62,775 bases of DNA. Origin: Lachnospiraceae bacterium (GTDB lineage Bacteria; Bacillota; Clostridia; Lachnospirales; Lachnospiraceae). The stretch spans positions 1-62,775 of the forward strand of contig JAGBBM010000093.1 in NCBI GenBank assembly GCA_017938485.1, given 5' to 3'. The position numbers were made by a program, and so were the translations under genes. This document shows positions 3,559 to 62,127 of this stretch, piece by piece. How positions within the stretch are numbered: position 1 is the first letter of the stretch; the number at the start of each line of letters is the position of its first letter. The notes below the pieces were generated by a model that saw only the letters and a list, made by a program, of their open reading frames with translations, was not told the DNA's origin and searched no databases.

Positions 3559-3730
3559 GAAACTCCTTCTATAATAACAGGTCATTGCAGGCACGCTCTC
3601 GCTACTTGTCACACGTAACGGTACTAAGCTCAAATCCACATAACACAAAATACCGTGTTATGCGTCTTTTCACTAAGTACCGACGGTTCCAAAGTACCTA
3701 CTTATGACCTATTATTATAGTCGAAGTTTC
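3559..3730. repeat. palindromic element A, single-tier relative of the large swapped-module palindromes
   Basis: An outer imperfect inverted repeat pairs 3559-3585 with 3704-3730. Inside, a left module at 3591-3628 begins CACGCTCTCGCT and ends GTACTAAG, closely matching the X modules at 20168-20203 and 24296-24332. It faces an unrelated right module (about 3672-3700). Between them lies a small hairpin, CATAACAC with GTGTTATG (3639-3662). The element separates purO from the AICAR transformylase gene, both read leftward, so it would be in their mRNA. It could be a processing or attenuation structure, or a mobile palindromic repeat. Confidence 0.7.
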
Positions 3731-4559: not shown

Positions 4560-4620
4560 AAAAAAAGACCCACCAGACAACATCTTATGCCGAAGCATAA
4601 GCTTAATTGCCCAGACGGTC
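4560..4620 (-). terminator. attenuator of the ZTP riboswitch
   Basis: A minus-strand hairpin capped by a TTCG loop (CTTATGC-TTCG-GCATAAG) is extended by GCAA/TTGT and GACC/GGTC pairing and followed by seven T residues. Its 5' side uses the GACCGTCTGGGCAA segment that forms the 3' half of the aptamer, so ligand-bound aptamer and terminator exclude each other. Confidence 0.8.
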
Positions 4621-4689
4621 GGCCTAAAAGTCTTACATATATACAGTGTACTCCACGTGGTTAATTCCACTTATCCGTCAGTCATACAC
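4607..4689 (-). promoter_or_regulatory. ZTP (pfl) riboswitch aptamer
   Basis: Read on the minus strand the leader has the conserved pfl-motif landmarks in order: P1 strand GTGTA, then TGACTGACGG, a GTGGA...ACCAC hairpin, GGAGTACAC closing P1 exactly, a linker, and GCCGACCGTCTGGGCA as the second subdomain. It senses ZTP/ZMP, which builds up when 10-formyl-THF is short, and should relieve the downstream terminator so that purO and purH are transcribed. Confidence 0.9.
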
Positions 4690-4761
4690 CTACTTAAACA
4701 TAACATTTAAATTACCACTTTTCAAGAGTTAAATGTTAAAATTAATACAAAAATATTACTG

Positions 4762-18541: not shown

Positions 18542-19252
18542 ATGGGAAATTTTGAACAAAAGTTAGAAAAGTTCTTAGAAATCTTCATTGACCAAAATGG
18601 TTATGTAAAGGTTTTAGAGGGATTAAAAAACACTTTAATAATTGCTGTATTAGGTCTTATTATCGGTATACTTATAGGAACACTTATAGCTACTGTACGA
18701 GTTATTCCAAAATACAAGGTTCTTCCAAGAATACTTAATGGATTTTGTAGTTTCTATGTAGGAATGTTTAGAGGAACTCCTATGGTAGTTCAGTTGCTTG
18801 TATTTTACTATGTTATGCTTCCTATTATGGGAGTACATATGCCTTCAGTTCAAGTAGCCATACTGGTTTTCGGACTTAACAGTGGTGCATATATATCAGA
18901 GATTATGCGAAGCGGTATTTTATCCGTTGATGGTGGTCAGATGGAAGCAGGTCGTGCAGTTGGACTTAGCTTCGGAACAACTATGATAAAAATTGTCATT
19001 CCACAGGCTGTAAAAAACATTCTCCCAACCTTGGGAAATGAATTTATTGCCCTCATCAAAGAAACTTCTGTAGTAAGTTTTATCGGTGCTGCTGATTTAT
19101 ATGTTGCATTCAACCTTATAGGAAGTAACAGCTACGAGTTCATGGTTCCTTACCTCGTTATGGCAGTTATATATATTATTCTGGTTCTCCTCATTAGTTT
19201 GGGAATCAAGATTATGGAAAGGAGCCTGAGAAAAAGTGATAGACGTAATTAA
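18542..19252 (+). CDS. amino-acid ABC transporter permease (HisM/GlnP type)
   Basis: Membrane channel subunit, 236 residues, five predicted helices. It starts [18 protein letters not shown] and contains [11 protein letters not shown] and the coupling-loop motif [20 protein letters not shown] contacting the ATPase (about residues 140-160). ATG 18542 follows GAGAGG. It is second in the importer operon; its end overlaps the ATPase start by 17 bp. Confidence 0.95.
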
Positions 19253-20060
19253 TCTTGAAAAAAAATTCGGTGACAATAATGTCTTAAACGGAATAAGTAT
19301 CAAAATTGAAAAAGGTGATATTGTCTGTGTTATTGGACCTTCAGGTTCCGGAAAAAGTACATTTCTTAGATGTTTAAACTGTATGGAGGATCCAACTGGC
19401 GGTCAGATTATCTTCAATGGTGTAGATATAGCTGACCAAAAGGTTGATATCAACATCCACAGACGTAATATGGGTATGGTTTTCCAGCATTTCAATCTCT
19501 TTAACAACAAAACTGTTATCGAAAATATTATGCTTGCTCCAATCCATGTTCAATGTCAGGACTTAAAGAAGGCTAAAAAGACTAACCGCCTTACAAAAAT
19601 TACAAATATTTTTAGAAAAGATAAAAAAGAGCTTATCCCTATTACCACCAATAAGGCAGAAATCCAGGAAAAAGCAAAGAAACAAGCAATTTCTCTTCTT
19701 GAAAGAATTGGACTTGCAGATAAAGCAGATGTTTATCCATCTACTCTTTCTGGTGGTCAGAAGCAAAGAGTTGCTATTGTTCGTTCTCTTGCTATGAACC
19801 CAGATGTAATTCTCTTTGATGAGCCTACATCAGCTCTTGACCCTGAAATGGTTGGAGAAGTTCTTGACCTTATGAAATCTCTTGCAAGAGAAGGTATGAC
19901 TATGATTATAGTAACTCACGAGATGGGCTTTGCAAAGGAAGTTGCTAACAAGGTAATCTTCATCGACGAAGGTCAAATCCTAGAAAGCGCTTCACCAGAC
20001 GAATTCTTTAACAACCCTAAAAACCCAAGACTCAAAGAATTCCTTTCCAAAGTATTATAA
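19236..20060 (+). CDS. amino-acid ABC transporter ATPase with an extra insert
   Basis: Energises the importer. Walker [10 protein letters not shown] (about residues 34-42), Q-loop VFQHFNLF, signature [11 protein letters not shown], Walker [15 protein letters not shown] and switch VTHEMGFA are all present. Compared with relatives (about 240-250 residues) it has about 30 extra, Lys-rich residues between the APIHVQ segment and ISLLERIG (about 108-150), in the helical subdomain next to the permease contact. The start is GTG 19236 within the permease gene; AAGGAGCC lies upstream. The last 7 bp form the start of palindromic element C. Confidence 0.93.
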
Positions 20061-20532
20061 TCCCTATACACCCTAGGTTGATTATATATACAAACAAACC
20101 CACTTACCCCTTCATTCAAACAGACACCTTAAGCTTGGTACGGGGTATATATAGGGTGTAATCAAAACCCGCTCTCGCTCGTCTCACACGCAGGAGTACT
20201 AAGGCCCTTGGCTGGAACAATATATAGGGCATAAGAAAACCGTTTGAACACGCGGGCACTTAGCAAAAAATATAGGATGTAGATATCGATGTTAATCGAA
20301 TAATCTACACCCTATATTTTTTGCTTAGTACCCTTGCGTAGTGAGACGAGCGAAAGCGTGTTTTCACTATGCCCTATATATTGTTCCAGCCAAGAGCCTA
20401 AGGACTCGCGTGTTCAAACGGTTTTTATACACCCTATATATACCCTTTACCAAGCTTAAGGTGCCTGTCTGAATGAAGGGGTAAAGCGGACTCTGTATAT
20501 ATAGTGAAGAATGGTGTATAAGGGATTATAAT
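20054..20532. repeat. palindromic element C with exchanged internal modules
   Basis: An imperfect 479-bp palindrome fills the gap between convergent genes and includes both stop codons. Outer arms are 20054-20167 and 20427-20532. Reading rightward: module X (20168-20203), stem s1 (20204-20233), module Y (20234-20263), stem s2 (20264-20284), a central turn, s2' (about 20304-20323), X' (20324-20360), s1' (20368-20397; 29 of 30 complementary to s1) and Y' (20398-20426). In the folded form X faces Y' and Y faces X', so they do not pair and give two internal loops, while X is complementary to X' and Y to Y'. Type and function unknown. Confidence 0.85.
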
Positions 20533-21413
20533 ACCTTGGAAACTGTCCCCTTTTCTACTAGGCGGACAGGTTGATAGGAAGTCTTTGCATGTCTAAGTCC
20601 TGGTACGCCCATATCTTCCTCCCGATTAATGTACTTATATCCTCTTAGGTTTCTTCTTACGAATTCTCTATTAATCATAGGATATGCACCTTGGATATCA
20701 GCATAAGCTTTTTCAAAATGAACCACATAGGTATCTTCTTTTAAAGGCTCCCCTAAGGTAAATGCTACTACCTTTCCATCAACTCTTATAAGAGCACCCT
20801 CTAATCCTAATATATCCTTATGTTGAAGAGCATACTTTACAGCCTCGGTTTCGTAGGATATGGTTTCATCTACTTCGCCACTATCTCTCCATAATTCAGT
20901 AAGTTCAATACATTCCTCATAATTCGAACCATCTATATTTTCATATACATAATCAGGATGATTCTCTAAAAATCTATTTATATGGTTTCTCTTTCCATGT
21001 AACTTTTTACCTTTCAAGTATGCAAGGGTTTCCCACTCGTACAGATAATCAGCCTCATCCCTATGGTACTCAATTTTATATTTACCAGGATACCAAGTAT
21101 CTATGAGAGCAAACATTTCTCGCTCTACCAAGTACATACAAAAAGGTAATTTATTGTCCTCAAAGTACTTTTCAATTGCATCGAAAGCTCGTTTCTTATC
21201 TCCTTTTCCCATTGGAAAGGTCACCTTCTCAATAACACCATCTTTAGTTTTACAAAATACCAGCATATCTTCTATGATGGTAAATTCTCCTTTAAAAAAA
21301 TTAGACCATAAAATATTATTGGCTGCGGTAAACTCGCAGCCATAATATTCGTTATATCTTAAGTATTGATTTAATAAATCCTTGTTTTCCATACAAGGGG
21401 TCTGTATATACAT
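20526..21413 (-). CDS. DUF2156 protein (phosphatidylglycerol lysyltransferase C-terminal-like)
   Basis: A 295-residue soluble protein of the LPG-synthase C-terminal/GNAT-like fold. Landmarks are NILWSNFF near residue 34, KGKKLHGKRNHINRF (about 133-147), GALIRVDGKVVAFTLGEPL (about 205-223), HFEKAYADIQGAYPMINREF and the closing EEDMGVPGLRHAKTSYQP. Relatives use aminoacyl-tRNA or act as acyltransferases on lipids; without the membrane domain of MprF the substrate is open. ATG 21413 follows GGAGGCG. It lies 20 bp after the repeat-rich protein gene, likely the same transcript. Confidence 0.85.
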   Translation of the reverse strand: MYIQTPCMENKDLLNQYLRYNEYYGCEFTAANNILWSNFFKGEFTIIEDMLVFCKTKDGVIEKVTFPMGKGDKKRAFDAIEKYFEDNKLPFCMYLVEREMFALIDTWYPGKYKIEYHRDEADYLYEWETLAYLKGKKLHGKRNHINRFLENHPDYVYENIDGSNYEECIELTELWRDSGEVDETISYETEAVKYALQHKDILGLEGALIRVDGKVVAFTLGEPLKEDTYVVHFEKAYADIQGAYPMINREFVRRNLRGYKYINREEDMGVPGLRHAKTSYQPVRLVEKGTVSKVL

Positions 21414-21433: not shown

Positions 21434-22618
21434 TTACATACCCTCGATAAGCACATCTACATCGCTCTTACCGAACTCGTAGAGCATTGCTCTAATCTCT
21501 TCTATAGTGTAGCTATCGGCATGGATATATACCTTTTCAAATAACTTATCAACATAACCACACCACTTCTCATAAATTCTAACTCTATCCTCAGTAGTTG
21601 GTTCCTTGATTCTTGCTTGTGTTGTATAGTTGCGATTACCAGAGGTAAGTATCTCTTTCATAGACACAGCCCTTGGTTCTATACCATAGGCAATGTATTT
21701 GATTTCCTCTGTTCTAACTAAAGCACAATCATACATCTCAACAAGTAAATCTTCTATGCAATCTTTTGCTATATTGAAATGATGATAATACATATCTTCT
21801 GTCTTATATGATGGTTTCTCGGCCACATCCATCTTATTATACCAATAAAAATCAGCTGTACTAGACACATTAGATCTTATAGGTTTTCTTGCAGTTGTTT
21901 CTTTAGCAATTTTGCTTTGTGCTATAGCCACACTAAGAGCTTCCGCCTCTTTAATAGATTCCTCGATATTACTTGGATTAACCACATTATTGTCTACAAC
22001 TGGAGCATCAAATACACTATCCGCAAAGGCGCTATCTACAAAGGCACTATCTGTAATCGTATTATCCGCAAATGCACTATCTGTAAATGCGCTATCTGTA
22101 AATGCACTATCTGTAAACGCACTATCTGACACAGGTTCTTCAGTTTTCTGTACTGGTATCACAGGCTCACTAACTGCCTCAACAGGCTGTTCAACAACTG
22201 GAGCTATAGGCTCAGGTTGTACACTTGGCTGAGTCTGATTTACAGATACAACAGGTTGCTCACTTGACACTGGTATTGACTCAGTATGCTCTTGTGCAGA
22301 AATAACCGCTTCTAATGTAGGTATCTCTGTACTTGTGTCTGAAACAGGCATATAGTTTTCTACGCTATTTGAAAAGGCACTATCAAACACAGATTCCACT
22401 TCTGAGCTATCATCCTCATCATACCAATCCCTACTAGCCTTTTCATCCTTTGAAAACAAATCATACTCGTCATATTCTTCGTCTACATATTTATCAACTT
22501 CCTTATCTTTCTTACCCTTAGACTTGCTTACAATCAATGTTATAGTAAGTGTCACCAATAAAATAAAGAAAAGAACTAAAATCACTCCGTAAATAATTGC
22601 AATAATGCTTCCGTCCAT
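21434..22618 (-). CDS. single-pass membrane protein with DSAF repeats, function unknown
   Basis: Residues 7-30 form one membrane helix; a charged Lys/Asp/Glu stretch follows. The middle (about 85-230) is low-complexity, rich in Val, Pro, Ser, Asp, and holds eight near-tandem five-residue units of the form DSAFT. The C-terminal 150 residues (from about 245, YWYNKMDVAEKPSYKTEDMY onward) look like a folded helical domain that I do not recognise, with CALVRTEEIKY and GIEPRAVSMKEI. The layout, membrane anchor, flexible spacer, compact end, suggests a tethered cytoplasmic or surface domain. Start has only a modest AGGTAAT site. Confidence 0.75.
   Translation of the reverse strand: MDGSIIAIIYGVILVLFFILLVTLTITLIVSKSKGKKDKEVDKYVDEEYDEYDLFSKDEKASRDWYDEDDSSEVESVFDSAFSNSVENYMPVSDTSTEIPTLEAVISAQEHTESIPVSSEQPVVSVNQTQPSVQPEPIAPVVEQPVEAVSEPVIPVQKTEEPVSDSAFTDSAFTDSAFTDSAFADNTITDSAFVDSAFADSVFDAPVVDNNVVNPSNIEESIKEAEALSVAIAQSKIAKETTARKPIRSNVSSTADFYWYNKMDVAEKPSYKTEDMYYHHFNIAKDCIEDLLVEMYDCALVRTEEIKYIAYGIEPRAVSMKEILTSGNRNYTTQARIKEPTTEDRVRIYEKWCGYVDKLFEKVYIHADSYTIEEIRAMLYEFGKSDVDVLIEGM
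22008..22129 (-). repeat. 15-bp tandem repeats coding DSAFT units
   Basis: About eight 15-bp units of the type GCACTATCTGTAAAT (plus strand), the four at 22068-22127 nearly identical, the others diverged. They encode DSAFT/DSAFA/DSAFV. No spacers, so not CRISPR. Confidence 0.9.
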
Positions 22619-22779: not shown

Positions 22780-24228
22780 ATGTCAAAAGTTAGAACAAGA
22801 TTTGCTCCTAGCCCAACAGGAAGAATGCATGTGGGTAACTTAAGAACTGCCCTTTATGCTTATCTTATCGCTAAACATGAAGGCGGTGACTTTATCCTAC
22901 GTATCGAAGATACAGACCAGGTACGTGAGGTAGAAGGAGCTGTTGATATCATATACAGAACTCTTGCAAAAACAGGTCTTTTACATGACGAAGGTCCAGA
23001 CAAAGATGGTGGAGTTGGACCTTATGTTCAAAGTGAGCGCCAGGCAAATGGAATTTATCTTGAGTACGCTAAGATGCTTGTAGAAAAAGGTGAAGCGTAC
23101 TACTGTTTCTGTGATGAAGAAAGACTTAATAGTCTTGTTACAGAATTAGAGGGAAAAACTATTTCTCGTTATGACAAGCATTGCTTACATCTTTCAAAAG
23201 AAGAAATTGAAGCCAATCTTGCAGCAGGAAAACCATATGTCATCAGACAGAACAATCCTCTTGAAGGTACAACAACCTTTAAGGATGAGTTATATGGTGA
23301 TATAACTGTTCCAAATGAGGAACTGGATGATATGGTTCTCATCAAGTCAGATGGTTTCCCAACATACAACTTTGCCAATGTTGTAGATGACCATCTCATG
23401 AACATTACACATGTTGTAAGAGGTAACGAATACCTTTCATCATCACCAAAATACAACAGATTATATGATGCATTTGGCTGGGAAGTTCCAACATATATAC
23501 ACTGTCCACTCATAACTGATGAAACTCATAAAAAGTTAAGTAAGCGTAGTGGTCACTCTTCTTTTGAAGATTTACTCGAGCAGGGATTTTTAACTGAAGC
23601 CATCATTAACTTTGTAGCACTTCTTGGTTGGAGTCCAGAGGATAACAGAGAAATATTCTCTCTCGAAGAATTAGTTGAAGCTTTTGATTACACTCATATG
23701 TCAAAGTCTCCTGCAGTCCTCGACATGACAAAGCTTAAGTGGATGAACGGCGAATACATCAAGGCTATGGATGAAGAAGCTTTCTACGAGATGGCACTTC
23801 CATACATCAAAGATGTTATTTCCAAGCCTCTTGATTACAAGAAAATTGCTTCTATGATTAAATCAAGAATCGAAGTTTTCACAGATATCAAAGAGCAGAT
23901 TGATTTCTTTGAGGCTGTGCCAGAATACGATAACGATATGTATACTCACAAGAAGATGAAGACTAACCCAGAAAATTCTCTTACTCTTCTTACTGAGGTT
24001 CTCCCAGTGCTTGAAGCACAGGATAATTTTGATAATGACTCATTGTTTGAAGCTTTACAAAGTTTCGGCAAAGAAAAGGAATACAAAACAGGCTTTATTA
24101 TGTGGCCTCTTAGAACTGCTGTATCAGGAAAGCAGGCAACCCCAGGTGGTGCAACAGAGCTTATGTCAGTACTTGGCAAAGAAGAGACCATCGCAAGAAT
24201 TAAAGCTGCCATCGCAAAGCTTAGCTAG
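22780..24228 (+). CDS. gltX: glutamyl-tRNA synthetase
   Basis: Charges tRNA-Glu with glutamate in the cytoplasm. Class I synthetase landmarks: the HIGH-type [16 protein letters not shown] at residues 7-22, DTD after [27 protein letters not shown] in the catalytic fold (read as VVDDHLM then HVVRGNEYL), and the KMSKS-type KLSKRSG near residue 253. The anticodon-binding half (about 330-482) ends [13 protein letters not shown]. Full length, 482 residues. Own promoter at 22715; 8 bp after the stop begins palindromic element D. Confidence 0.97.
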
Positions 24229-24235
24229 TCAAGGC

Positions 24236-24608
24236 AAAACTAAGTTTTACACCTCTTAAGCCCCTTGACGCAATACAAATATCCCATATCAAAAACACGC
24301 TCTCGCTCGTCTCACTACGCAGGAGTACTAAGGTTCTTGGCTGGATAATATATGGGGCATAAGAAAACCGTTTGAACACGCGGGCACTTAGCAAAAAAAT
24401 ATAGGATGTAGATATCGATGTTAATCAAATAATCTACATCCTATATTTTTTGCTTAGTACCCTTGCGTAGTGAGACGAGCGAAAGCGTGTTTTCACTATG
24501 CCCCATATATTATCCAGCCAAGAACCTAAGGACTCGCGTGTTCAAACGGTTTTTTTATGGGATATTTGTATTGCGTCAAGGGGCTTAAAAGGTGTAAACG
24601 TTAGTTTT
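24236..24608. repeat. palindromic element D, second copy of the exchanged-module design
   Basis: A 373-bp imperfect palindrome between gltX and the convergent yfbR-like gene. The outer stem includes a perfect 30-bp pairing (24258-24287 with 24557-24586), unrelated in sequence to element C's outer stem. Then X (24296-24332), s1 (24333-24361), Y (24362-24391), s2 (24392-24413), turn, s2' (24432-24452), X' (24453-24489), s1' (24497-24525, an exact complement of s1) and Y' (24526-24555). Y and X' are identical to those of element C. X and X' agree at 34 of 37 positions, Y and Y' at 26 of 30. Confidence 0.87.
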
Positions 24609-25194
24609 AGTTTAACTCGTCTAGGGTCTTTGCGAAGGCCGACAAGAATTCTTCCATGAAGTCTTTCACTTCCGGAAGTTCATTGGACAAAGTTAGAATT
24701 GCTTTTTCTGTAGCTTCCTTAGCCTTTACAAATTCTCTGTTACCGGTTTTTTCTTCTTCCATACATTTTATCATAGCTGAAAGTTTATCTGCTGCTTTTA
24801 CAAGCTTCCACTCATACGCGTAATCTTCGGTTTTGAAGAATATATCTTCATAAGCCTCTCTTATATCCTCTGGAAGCTGATTCAAAAGACTTCTGTTTGC
24901 TTCATCTTCAAGAGATTTGTAAGCATCCTTTATGAGTTTATTGTAGTATTTTACAGGAGTTGGCATATCACCTGTTATAATTTCTGAGGTATCATGATAG
25001 ATGCCTATCATAGCTGCTTTTTCTGCGTTTAAACTCTTTCCATATCGCTTATTGCCTATTACGCAGAGAGCATGAGCTATCATTGAAACCTCAAGAGAAT
25101 GCTCTGACAAATTCTCTGTAATTGTGTTTCTCATAAGGGCCCATCTTTCAATATATTTCATACGTGCTACTGTTGCATAAAAATTGTATTCCAT
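24607..25194 (-). CDS. YfbR-like 5'-deoxynucleotidase (HD domain)
   Basis: An HD-domain phosphohydrolase likely to remove phosphate from deoxynucleoside monophosphates. Features of YfbR are present: RW in IERWALMRN (about residue 18), EHS at 31-33, IYHDTSEIITGDMPTPVK (metal HD about 66-67, substrate-specific TPVK) and a late Asp in KAADKLSAM (about 133). Length 195 is normal. ATG 25194 follows AAGGAAT. It is last in the run ftsH to yfbR on the minus strand and its stop lies in the end of element D. Confidence 0.87.
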   Translation of the reverse strand: MEYNFYATVARMKYIERWALMRNTITENLSEHSLEVSMIAHALCVIGNKRYGKSLNAEKAAMIGIYHDTSEIITGDMPTPVKYYNKLIKDAYKSLEDEANRSLLNQLPEDIREAYEDIFFKTEDYAYEWKLVKAADKLSAMIKCMEEEKTGNREFVKAKEATEKAILTLSNELPEVKDFMEEFLSAFAKTLDELN

Positions 25195-31692: not shown

Positions 31693-31718
31693 CAAATAAC
31701 CTCCAAAAAAATATATAT

Positions 31719-31836
31719 CCGGGATGCCGTTTCCTGCCTTTTGACTCCTAGCCACGCTAGGTGGGCAACCGCACGTAGTTTTCTGCCTTCCACTGCTAAG
31801 GAGGCCTGACATCCGACTACGATTTAGGAATCCCGT
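31719..31836 (-). ncRNA. unidentified structured RNA leader before the SpoIID-like gene
   Basis: GC-rich compared with its surroundings and strongly foldable on the minus strand. CGGGAT near 31836 closes with ATCCCG near 31720; inside, CGTAGT pairs with ACTACG around a GCCTCC/GGAAGGC hairpin, and a second arm holds CCTAG-CGTGG-CTAGG with GTTGCC/GGC..AAC pairing. Two similar purine-rich words, GGCAGAAAAC and GGCAGGAAAC, lie in unpaired positions. A T7 run follows and merges into the GGAGG of the gene. It does not match any riboswitch I can recall; 6S-like or a new cis-regulator are both possible. Confidence 0.55.
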
Positions 31837-32091
31837 TTAAAGTAAATGTAGGTTCAAAATAAACAGGAGTTATCGAACATTCCAGATATATATGTAATAA
31901 CGATTTCTATGTATTGATTATATAATAATTATATGTTTTTTTCAAGGTTTTATTTATCCATTTTTTGTAAATAAAACGAGGAATTATCACATTTTTTCGT
32001 CATTTTTTACAAATAGAATTATAAATGTAGCTAAATATCTCCTATTATGATATTCTAAGCTAAGAAAATAAAAAAAGAGGTACATAACACT
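31837..32091. other. AT-rich intergenic region between divergent genes
   Basis: Holds the presumed promoters of the SpoIID-like unit and phosphofructokinase, though I cannot assign a clear -35/-10 pair. A hairpin GTTTTATTT/AAATAAAAC lies at about 31946-31978. No coding potential seen. Confidence 0.5.
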
Positions 32092-40421: not shown

Positions 40422-41180
40422 ATGTTATATCTTGAAATGAACAATATAAAAAAATCCTTCGGAGACCTTCAGGTACTTAAAGATATTAGTCTTCAAGTAA
40501 GAGAAGGCGAGGTTATATCCATAATTGGACCTTCTGGCTCAGGCAAATCCACTCTGCTTAGAATTGCCACTATGTTAGAAACCTTAGATTATGGCACTAT
40601 CTCTTATCTAGGGGAAGAAGCAGTATCATTATATGATGGCGAATCCGTATATGCAAAACCTAAAAAGCTTAAGGAAATCAAAAAGAACTTTGGACTAGTT
40701 TTCCAAAACTTCAATCTTTTTCCTCACTATACGGTTTTAAAAAACATTACAGACGCTCCTATTTCCGTCCAAAAGCGAAACAAAAAAGAGGTAATGAAAG
40801 AGGCGAAAGAGCTCCTAGATAAAATGGGACTTTCTGATAAAGCAGATTACTATCCATGCCAGCTTTCTGGTGGTCAACAACAGCGTGTAGCAATTGCAAG
40901 AGCTTTAGCATTGAAGCCAAAGGTACTTTTCTTTGATGAACCAACTTCAGCTCTTGACCCAGAGCTTACCGGAGAAGTCCTCAAAGTCATCAAATCTCTT
41001 GCGGAGCAAAAGATGACTATGGTCATCGTAACTCACGAGATGAGTTTTGCTAGAAATATATCAGACCGAGTAATCTTTATGGATAAAGGTGTTATCGCTG
41101 TAGAAGGTTCTCCCGAGGAAGTCTTTAATTCCTCCAACGAACGTATGCAGGAATTCCTCGGAAAACTTAATCACGAATAA
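40422..41180 (+). CDS. amino-acid ABC transporter ATPase
   Basis: 252-residue nucleotide-binding subunit completing the importer: Walker [22 protein letters not shown], signature [15 protein letters not shown], Walker [15 protein letters not shown], switch [10 protein letters not shown]. It has the normal length, so the long insert in the paralogue at 19236 is clear by comparison. GGAGG before ATG. A hairpin terminator begins one base past the stop. Confidence 0.95.
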
Positions 41181-41218
41181 AAATAAAGGAAGGTGTAGGA
41201 ACACCTTCCTTTATTTTT
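41181..41218 (+). terminator. terminator of the importer operon
   Basis: AAATAAAGGAAGGTGT pairs with ACACCTTCCTTTATTT around a GGA loop; A and T runs flank it, so it may work both ways. Confidence 0.92.
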
Positions 41219-41230
41219 ACACTACATCTT

Positions 41231-41709
41231 AATATAATTTACAAGACGATTCATGTAACTATGTATTATCTGAAATTTCTTCGCAACTCTACGGGTTTAA
41301 GTGTATCTAAGGTATAAGCTTTCGATGTTTGATTACGTGCCACTTCCATAAACTCGCATGTCTTTTGTGATATAACTATGGATTTTTGAAGACAATTAGC
41401 TTGTACCAAATATCAAGATTTTATAACTTGCGATGAATGTACTGCGTAAGCGATGTTTGAGTCCCACAAAGTGGGACGAGTTTCGCGAAAGCAGTACTAA
41501 TCAAACATCGCAAGTTTAAAATCTTAGATATTTGCACAAGCGTAGAGTTGCGAAAAAATCCATAGTTATATCCCAAAAGACATACTCAGACATATGTGCG
41601 TGGCACGATTCATCGAAAGCTATTAAACCTAAGATACACTAGAAACCCTAATTGTCTTCAGAAATTCCAGATAATACATAGTTATATGAACCGTCTTGTA
41701 AATCATATT
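41231..41709. repeat. palindromic element E, four-tier exchanged-module palindrome
   Basis: A 479-bp imperfect palindrome between two ordinary terminators. Outer stem 41231-41280/41660-41709; second stem near 41294-41343/41600-41647; third 41361-41387/41554-41580; fourth 41401-41434/41505-41535; a GTCCCAC/GTGGGAC hairpin at 41461-41477. Module P (41281-41293, TCGCAACTCTACG) recurs as an exact complement at 41541-41553; module R (41387-41399, TGAAGACAATTAG) as an exact complement at 41648-41660. Folded, P faces R' and R faces P'. A similar exchange of AAACTCG and T-TGAG words is seen in the inner tiers. Core words GACGAG, CGAAAGC, GTACTAA recall module X of elements C and D. Confidence 0.8.
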
Positions 41710-41716
41710 ATATGCA

Positions 41717-41750
41717 CAAAAAAGGGATGCCCTAAGGCATCCCTTTTTTT
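41717..41750. terminator. terminator of pilT
   Basis: AAAAAAGGGATGCC pairs with GGCATCCCTTTTTTT over a 4-nt loop; the T run on the minus strand ends pilT transcription. Confidence 0.93.
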
Positions 41751-53927: not shown

Positions 53928-54178
53928 GGGCAACAGTAGTAACATTTCTTATATATGCCCATTAATCAACTAACTTACAATACAACTTACACTATTTCTG
54001 GGCAGTGAAACTACACTTTTCTCTATATGCCCGTTATTCGAGTCATAAACTAGGTTATCATTGCTTTTCTCGGGCAGTAGAGTTCTATTTTTTTCCTATA
54101 TGACCGATATTTGCTTCATCCACTATAATTCCATTGCTTCAACTGGGCAATAGACTTCAAAAAGTTTATATATGCCCA
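53928..54178. repeat. four 72-bp imperfect tandem repeats with GGGCA/TGCCC hairpins
   Basis: Units begin at 53928, 54000, 54072 and 54145 (spacing 72, 72, 73). Each begins GGGCA, followed 22-27 bp later by TATATGCCC or, in unit three, TATATGACC; the rest of each unit is AT-rich and more diverged. Period and arms are conserved better than the spacers, so the hairpins may matter. No coding potential. Confidence 0.85.
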
Positions 54179-61977: not shown

Positions 61978-62004
61978 AAAAATCATACACTTATAATATA
62001 AGCC

Positions 62005-62092
62005 TTTTCCTACGCTGGCATTATCCAGATCAGGTTCACGGGTACTAGATGATAACATCTATCTCAGCCGGCTCAATTACCAGCGCCCCTTT
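62005..62092 (-). promoter_or_regulatory. TPP riboswitch (thi box)
   Basis: On the minus strand: GGGGCGCTGG, GCCGGCTGAGA (pyrimidine-sensor CTGAGA), a variable hairpin AGATGTTATCATCT, ACCCGTGAACCTGATCTGG and ATAATGCCAGCG closing the aptamer. Conserved words are complete. With the downstream hairpin it turns the transporter operon off when thiamine pyrophosphate is plentiful. Confidence 0.97.
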
Positions 62093-62127
62093 AAATTGTC
62101 AAGTTGATATTACTACATTTGGGTGGG

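What the first reader, a model, noticed from the sequence alone, without database searches (positions are those of the whole stretch)
20054..20532. Element C: a 479-bp palindrome whose internal modules are exchanged between its two arms
Seen directly. The stems nest as s0 s1 s2 ... s2' s1' s0', yet the modules run X, Y, X', Y'. X therefore faces Y' and Y faces X' when the stem folds. Each module has a true complement, but on the other tier, so each stem carries two bubbles whose strands could pair with the other bubble. A simple duplication-inversion would leave X opposite X'. The palindrome also takes in the stop codons of both convergent genes. I recognise no described element with this rule. 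A structured RNA, a cruciform recognised by a protein, or a bidirectional 3' end are all open.
Basis: seen in the sequence. Interest (0 to 1): 0.85.

Follow-up and report, generated by a model that had tools for sequence, protein, structure and literature searches.

The report
Self-nesting inverted hairpin repeat
The odd palindrome is one copy of a structured repeat, scattered through genomes of a gut-bacterial family, sitting inside an upside-down copy of itself between two genes that point at each other; why it nests upside-down is not known.

Summary
Element C is two copies of one ~100-nt unit, the inner one in the apical loop of the outer one, on the opposite strand. A covariance model of the unit (26 pairs, 18 with two-sided changes) hits 37 of 37 genomes of the genus and 30 of 295 of the order, all in one family (Lachnospiraceae by record titles). 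Of the loci I classified, 54 of 54 complete two-tier elements alternate; ten fragments do not fit the classes, and one (L030) has X facing X'. A second core family in the window nests the same way.

The conserved core looks like RNA: GNRA tetraloop in 225 of 235 modules scanned, an invariant U.U mismatch and a pyrimidine-U bulge. The long stems look DNA-made: few G.U pairs, and the right-hand gene ends in an inverted copy of glnQ's last codons.

Nested copies lie between convergent genes (39 of 47), singles less often. My reading: a dispersed, REPIN-like structured repeat whose inverted nesting gives either transcript one sense unit. The sense bias fails in the lineage richest in nested copies (16:14), the mover is unknown (Y1/RAYT rejected), and function is untested.

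The parts
20044..20542 (.). Whole palindrome (element C), including the two outermost arms
20224..20369 (+). Inner unit (Y ... hairpin ... X')
   Evidence: covariance model R1, 96 bits
20159..20437 (-). Outer unit, same motif on the opposite strand, with the inner unit in its apical loop
   Evidence: covariance model R1, 66.7 bits, L001:1606-1884
20164..20203 (+). Module X (outer, left)
20236..20263 (+). Module Y (inner, left)
20324..20364 (+). Module X' (inner, right), with the mini-hairpin GC-GAAA-GC at 20350-20357
20397..20425 (+). Module Y' (outer, right)
20044..20065 (+). Left outermost arm: last codons and stop of the glnQ-like gene
20521..20542 (-). Right outermost arm: inverted copy (21 of 22 nt) of the glnQ 3' end that now forms the end of the LPG_synthase_C gene
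19236..20060 (+). ABC transporter ATPase gene (glnQ-like), convergent neighbour
20526..21413 (-). LPG_synthase_C domain gene, convergent neighbour
24227..24617 (.). Second two-tier element of the same family, between convergent gltX-like and YfbR-like genes; inner unit 24352-24498 (+), outer 24287-24565 (-)
3583..3712 (-). A single (one-tier) unit in the same window
   Evidence: (77.3 bits)
41230..41710 (.). Two-tier element of a second core family (X2, Y2) that follows the same alternating rule

Best explanation
Element C is two nested copies of a dispersed ~100-nt structured repeat, in opposite orientation. The functional strand of each unit (Y ... X') folds as RNA into a stem with a G.A-rich internal loop, a pyrimidine-U bulge, a U.U mismatch and a side mini-hairpin closed by a GNRA tetraloop. 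A second, inverted copy lies in the apical loop of the first, so each DNA strand of the palindrome encodes exactly one sense unit, and a transcript from either convergent gene would carry one. The long complementary stems are kept matched, and stretched outward into the gene ends, by copying one arm from the other during replication (template switching). Shown: the unit, its distribution, the alternation, the convergent placement, the copied gene end. Inferred: that it is transcribed, that the two-strand display is why inverted nesting persists, that nesting arose by insertion, and that the units spread as non-autonomous (REPIN-like) elements. Who moves them is unknown.
For: Unit and structure: 26 pairs, 96.2% of cells paired, 18 pairs with two-sided change, 0 of 500 shuffles as high (21 sequences chosen by me, structure written by hand). 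Distribution: 37 of 37 genus genomes, 30 of 295 of the order. Alternation: 54 of 54 complete two-tier elements and 2 of 2 complete three-tier. RNA signature: GNRA in 225 of 235 modules where the hairpin pattern could be placed, six loop types, closing pairs that vary in concert; U.U 112 of 113, bulge 112 of 113. Placement: nested convergent 39 of 47 resolved; in G034/G036/G011 29 of 35 nested against 15 of 49 single, Fisher p 2.3e-6. Sense in tandem settings 62 against 27, p 2.7e-4. Arm copying: 13 of 13 GlnQ orthologs end FLSKVL (two with one more residue), 0 of 14 readable LPG_synthase_C orthologs end SKVL, the window's does; inter-tier stems of 52 nested elements: 1970 Watson-Crick, 37 G.U, 38 A.C, 94 other.
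Against: In G034/G036/G011, the lineage rich in nested copies, tandem singles show no sense bias (16 sense, 14 antisense), which a cis-acting RNA role should give. Without G006 the pooled bias is weak (43 against 25, p 0.04), and in G006 it cannot be separated from replication-strand bias (27 of 32 on the leading strand, my count). G.U pairs at consensus positions are only 48 of 2904 cells. The collapsed copy L030 carries a GATA loop, a GNYA, seen by eye and missed by the scan. Convergent placement could be simple tolerance of a large insertion. Some nested loci are orthologous between species, so the 54 are not independent events. No transcription data were available.
Confidence: 0.45

Rival explanations
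1. A DNA-level mobile element (MITE-like). The folded single strand of the unit is the substrate of a transposase supplied in trans, which inserts into hairpin loops with fixed polarity; alternation follows from the insertion chemistry, and convergent placement from tolerance.
For: Multicopy and dispersed; no orientation bias in tandem settings in G034/G036/G011; 0 of 26 resolved 102-nt singles there lie between divergent genes (one search list); GNNA loops closed by two G-C pairs are extraordinarily stable as DNA too (PMC4686876 passages); few G.U pairs.
Against: Of the loops scanned 225 of 235 are GNRA and none GNYA (one GNYA by eye in the collapsed L030), a restriction expected of RNA; no transposase partner found, Y1/RAYT family in 3 of 14 genomes while units are in 14 of 14; no target-site duplication obvious by eye in the 36 pairs of ends.
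Confidence: 0.3
2. A bidirectional 3'-end or terminator structure: the palindrome ends transcripts of both convergent genes.
For: Both stop codons lie in the arms, so nothing else separates the genes; nested copies lie between convergent genes; in 36 of 87 loci of one lineage the element ends in GGGGCTGTCGCAC-like arms, some with A-rich left and T-rich right flanks.
Confidence: 0.12
3. A neutral palindrome kept alive only by arm-to-arm copying, without function.
For: Arm copying is visible at the gene end and fits the inter-tier stems.
Against: Copying would erase the mismatched loops, yet X|Y' stays mismatched in all 54 complete two-tier elements, and the loop sequences are conserved across species.
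Confidence: 0.08

Closest known systems
REPINs (inverted REP doublets with RAYT transposase; PMC3116915, passages read including part of the abstract)
   Same: Short, dispersed, extragenic, hairpin-forming, inverted pairs; four side-by-side inverted pairs X Y' Y X' also seen here
   Different: Here the pair is mostly nested, not side by side; the unit is ~100 nt with conserved internal loops; the RAYT family is mostly absent
Bacterial MITEs such as NEMIS/Correia, ERIC/RU-1, RUP (PMC2229807, passages read)
   Same: About 100-200 bp, stable stem-loop transcripts, intergenic; NEMIS RNA is proposed there to act through RNase III
   Different: No self-nesting or alternating rule in the passages read ('nested' occurs 0 times in the text); no target-site duplication shown here
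MRSC-65-2 mobile/repeat candidate (PMC11109978, section 13 read)
   Same: Often dozens of copies per genome, one long covarying stem, DNA or RNA form undecided
   Different: Its conserved repeat is UYCCGG; no nested architecture is described in that section
Mitochondrial double-hairpin / repetitive hairpin elements (PMC2800124 and PMC7218506, passages read; the Allomyces paper only as cited there)
   Same: Mobile-looking hairpin repeats; double hairpins by tandem insertion
   Different: Organellar; 'nested' occurs 0 times in either text; in the sponge elements stems are conserved and loops vary, the reverse of here
Template switching between inverted-repeat arms (PMC8604942, abstract and outline seen)
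   Same: Arm homogenisation that rewrites coding sequence, as at the LPG_synthase_C gene end
   Different: Described there for short inverted repeats in yeast; here it acts on a large repeat element

Membership tests
REPIN / REP | Inverted doublets forming a hairpin | tested here: met
   Nested inverted pairs 54 of 54 complete two-tier elements; side-by-side inverted pairs 4
REPIN / REP | Associated Y1 tyrosine transposase (RAYT) in the genome | tested here: not met
   PF01797 in 3 of 14 genomes, none in the one-contig genome G006 with 32 units
MITE | Terminal inverted repeats | tested here: inconclusive
   GGGGCTGTCGCAC-like ends, mostly about 40, 65 or 98 nt from the cores, in 36 of 87 loci of one lineage; other lineages not tested
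MITE | Target-site duplication | tested here: inconclusive
   None obvious by eye in the 36 listed pairs of ends; some flanks continue the inverted repeat instead; no computed test
MITE | Empty orthologous sites | not tested
   Only element-bearing loci were compared with each other
Rfam RNA families | Match at the curated gathering score | tested here: not met
   None over element C; sub-threshold matches over it are miRNA models; seven single-unit loci give only a sub-threshold T-box in L049
Structured RNA motif | Covariation in stems with conserved loops, RNA-type loop rules | tested here: met
Structured RNA motif | Usual share of G.U pairs | tested here: inconclusive
   Consensus positions 48 of 2904 cells; TPP control 30 of about 250, of which 21 are one fixed G.U pair. 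Minimum-energy folds 4-8% with more on the Y|X' strand, TPP 104 of 669
Structured RNA motif | Transcribed | not testable with these tools
   No RNA-seq at hand

The most novel reading that the evidence does not exclude
A mobile RNA-encoding hairpin that targets the apical loop of its own folded copy, always with reversed polarity, so that it grows from the inside as an alternating onion of tiers and turns a one-strand RNA signal into a two-strand one between convergent genes, while replication copies its arms outward and rewrites the ends of neighbouring proteins.
Probability: 0.2. Interest if true: 0.9.

Novelty: new variant of a known kind. Interest (0 to 1): 0.68.

Why it matters
It gives a strict, countable architectural rule (self-nesting with reversed polarity) for a repeat found in every genome searched of one genus and in other genera of its family, a motif with no Rfam match where searched, and a clean natural case where palindrome arm-copying appears to have changed the C-terminus of a protein. 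It also warns that covariation in long bacterial hairpins can be produced by DNA copying, so it does not by itself prove a selected RNA.

Tried and rejected
RAYT/Y1 mobilisation: rejected by distribution. Known RNA family: none matched. Plasmid or phage carriage: no match by distant blastn with 221 bases of the window. Replication-strand signal: G006 is biased (27 of 32), but in G034/G036/G011 the tandem singles listed split 12 leading to 13 lagging, following gene orientation. Simple terminator: none found. Functional theme of downstream genes in G006: by eye from translated starts they look diverse (feoB, icd, purC, carB and others; names recalled), no database run. Single copy L394 as the empty state of family 2: its apex keeps ATTCCCC of the nested right arm, so it looks more like a deletion of the inner unit than an ancestor. 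L009's perfect fold-back starts near a contig end and its outward arms were set aside as a likely assembly fold-back. Module scan leftovers that are not complete elements, ten clusters: L230, L136, L300 (X X Y X'), L035, L055, L030 (X X' Y'), L276 (X X Y'), L085, L013, L051; L300 and L276 carry two X on one side and were not counted as same-strand nesting because partners are missing. A decay gradient of outer tiers was looked for; two-tier elements show almost none and the third tier rests on 2 elements.

Full report
Observation. X is complementary to X' and Y to Y' (0 of 2000 shuffles as good), while the facing pairs are not. The window lies in a 2.43 Mb draft genome of 137 contigs; a DNA search with element C gives 55 matches there at 15 distinct places, element C included.

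What it is. Comparing copies from many genomes shows that each tier is the same asymmetric unit: Y on one side of a stem, X' on the other. I aligned 21 such units in the Y...X' direction and wrote the structure by hand: 26 pairs, 96.2% of cells paired, 18 pairs with changes on both sides, none of 500 shuffles as high in these measures, slid structures 30-46% paired. The sequences were chosen by me and the structure came from them, so the genome searches are the better test. Model R1 finds 37 of 37 genomes of the genus with 1 to 52 matches each, 30 of 295 genomes of the order, all in the window's family and in 13 of 129 genera, and 5 of 398 genomes of the phylum, one of them (G686) in another family with two matches at E 2e-10 and 6e-10. 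Searches used stricter filters that lose weak matches. Named records with a core pattern are all Lachnospiraceae or 'Clostridium sp.' draft genomes (40 stretches).

The rule. R1 hits the inner tier on one strand and the outer tier, around it, on the other: 20 of 20 nested loci, 36 of 36, 9 of 9 (three of these the same places as). Separate profile models of the X' and Y cores, after dropping ten loci, give 109 complete single units, 54 complete two-tier elements, all alternating (27 read X Y X' Y', 27 read Y X Y' X', the same thing from the other strand), 2 complete three-tier elements, also alternating, 4 side-by-side inverted pairs X Y' Y X', and ten incomplete clusters; no X X Y' Y' and no X Y Y' X'. 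Some loci are orthologous between species, so 54 is not 54 events. The window also holds a different core family at 41230-41710; among 11 nested copies of it read in this genome, 8 show all four cores in alternating order and 3 lack one core, ignoring extra core hits with 4-5 errors; it matches in 7 of 37 genus genomes.

RNA or DNA. The X' core carries a mini-hairpin whose 4-nt loop is GNRA in 225 of 235 modules where the pattern could be placed and GNYA in none, with six loop types and closing pairs GC-GC, AC-GT, GT-AC (in the unit alignment 109 of 113). One GNYA loop, GATA, stands in the collapsed copy L030 (by eye) and escaped that scan. DNA mini-hairpins of this kind accept GNNA loops (PMC4686876 passages), so the restriction to GNRA points to RNA. 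A U.U mismatch (112 of 113) and a pyrimidine-U bulge (112 of 113) are nearly invariant. Minimum-energy folds favour the Y|X' strand (26 units of 102 nt: 69 G.U pairs against 8 on the other strand, though many may be inherited; G006 with flanks, 23 units: 108 against 53; nested elements of the window's genome, strand of the outer unit: 81 against 48), while nested elements of G034/G036/G011 are even (228 against 219), as a two-strand design would be. Against RNA: at consensus positions G.U pairs are 48 of 2904 cells and A.C 36, 21 of them in one column. A TPP riboswitch control from the same genus has 30 G.U of about 250 cells and 1 A.C, but 21 of the 30 are one fixed pair; in folds TPP has 104 G.U of 669 pairs, the units 4-8%. 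The stems between tiers are 1970 Watson-Crick, 37 G.U, 38 A.C, 94 other, 201 bases unaligned in 52 elements.

Arm copying. The outermost arm of element C covers the last codons of glnQ and of the facing LPG_synthase_C gene (domains), and both proteins end SKVL. In relatives, 13 of 13 GlnQ orthologs end FLSKVL (two add one serine), while none of 14 readable LPG_synthase_C orthologs (of 17 found, 3 not read) ends SKVL; they end KG-x-VT plus a variable tail. The simplest reading is that the end of glnQ was copied, inverted, onto the other gene. Template switching between inverted-repeat arms is a described mutation route (PMC8604942, abstract). This also means that stem covariation here is not by itself evidence of selection; the mismatched X|Y' loops, which copying would erase, are.

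Where it sits. With a simple longest-ORF caller, nested elements lie between convergent genes in 29 of 35 resolved cases in G034/G036/G011 and 10 of 12 in the window's genome (one unresolved in each); singles in the former are 15 of 49 convergent (two unresolved; Fisher p 2.3e-6). I analysed 87 of the 184 matches in those three genomes (mostly the best-scoring; some at contig starts and three already held were left out) and 31 of 32 in G006. Tandem singles are sense in 19 against 2 in G006, 14 against 5 in other species of the genus (29 units looked at), 6 against 1 in G027 (10 units), 5 against 3 in other genera and G686 (12 units), 2 against 2 in the window's genome, but 16 against 14 in G034/G036/G011. 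In G006 27 of 32 units also lie on the leading strand by GC skew, so transcription and replication cannot be told apart there.

Mechanism. The best single account is a dispersed structured repeat whose sense strand acts as RNA, nested in reverse so that both convergent transcripts carry one sense unit, with arms homogenised at the DNA level. The weak points are the missing sense bias in the very lineage richest in nested copies, the unknown mover, and the lack of transcription data. A DNA-level mobile element with polarised insertion into hairpin loops is the main rival.

Literature. Searches for Lachnospiraceae with REP, MITE, palindromic or structured-RNA terms, for quasipalindromes, for mobile hairpin elements, and for nested palindromes listed no paper that, from titles, abstract starts and the passages read, describes this element or the alternating rule. 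The library holds only open-licence papers and ISfinder was not available.

Noticed in passing
window 41230-41710: Nested palindrome with other cores (X2, Y2) and the same alternation; related matches in 7 of 37 genus genomes.
   Followed up: partly
window 53928-54178: Four short repeats GGGCA...TGCCC (one TGACC) at about 72-nt spacing, possibly small hairpins.
   Followed up: no
window about 41176-41219 and 41720-41750: Terminator-like hairpins with A and T runs flank the second-family element on both sides, seen in the fold.
   Followed up: no
window 21994-22141: 15-bp repeats in register inside the minus-strand ORF 21434-22618, giving DSAFT-like five-residue repeats.
   Followed up: no
window 31712-31891, 61990-62100, 4602-4695: 6S RNA, TPP riboswitch and ZTP riboswitch at gathering score.
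   Followed up: no
L414, L417 (G686): Two units in a genome of another family of the phylum: horizontal transfer or older origin.
   Followed up: partly
L009:1-620: Near-perfect fold-back of coding sequence close to a contig start, probably an assembly artefact.
   Followed up: no
L377, L378 (G029, G015): A hairpin with GCGATGTTTGA, like the innermost part of the second-family elements, occurs there within other outer stems.
   Followed up: no
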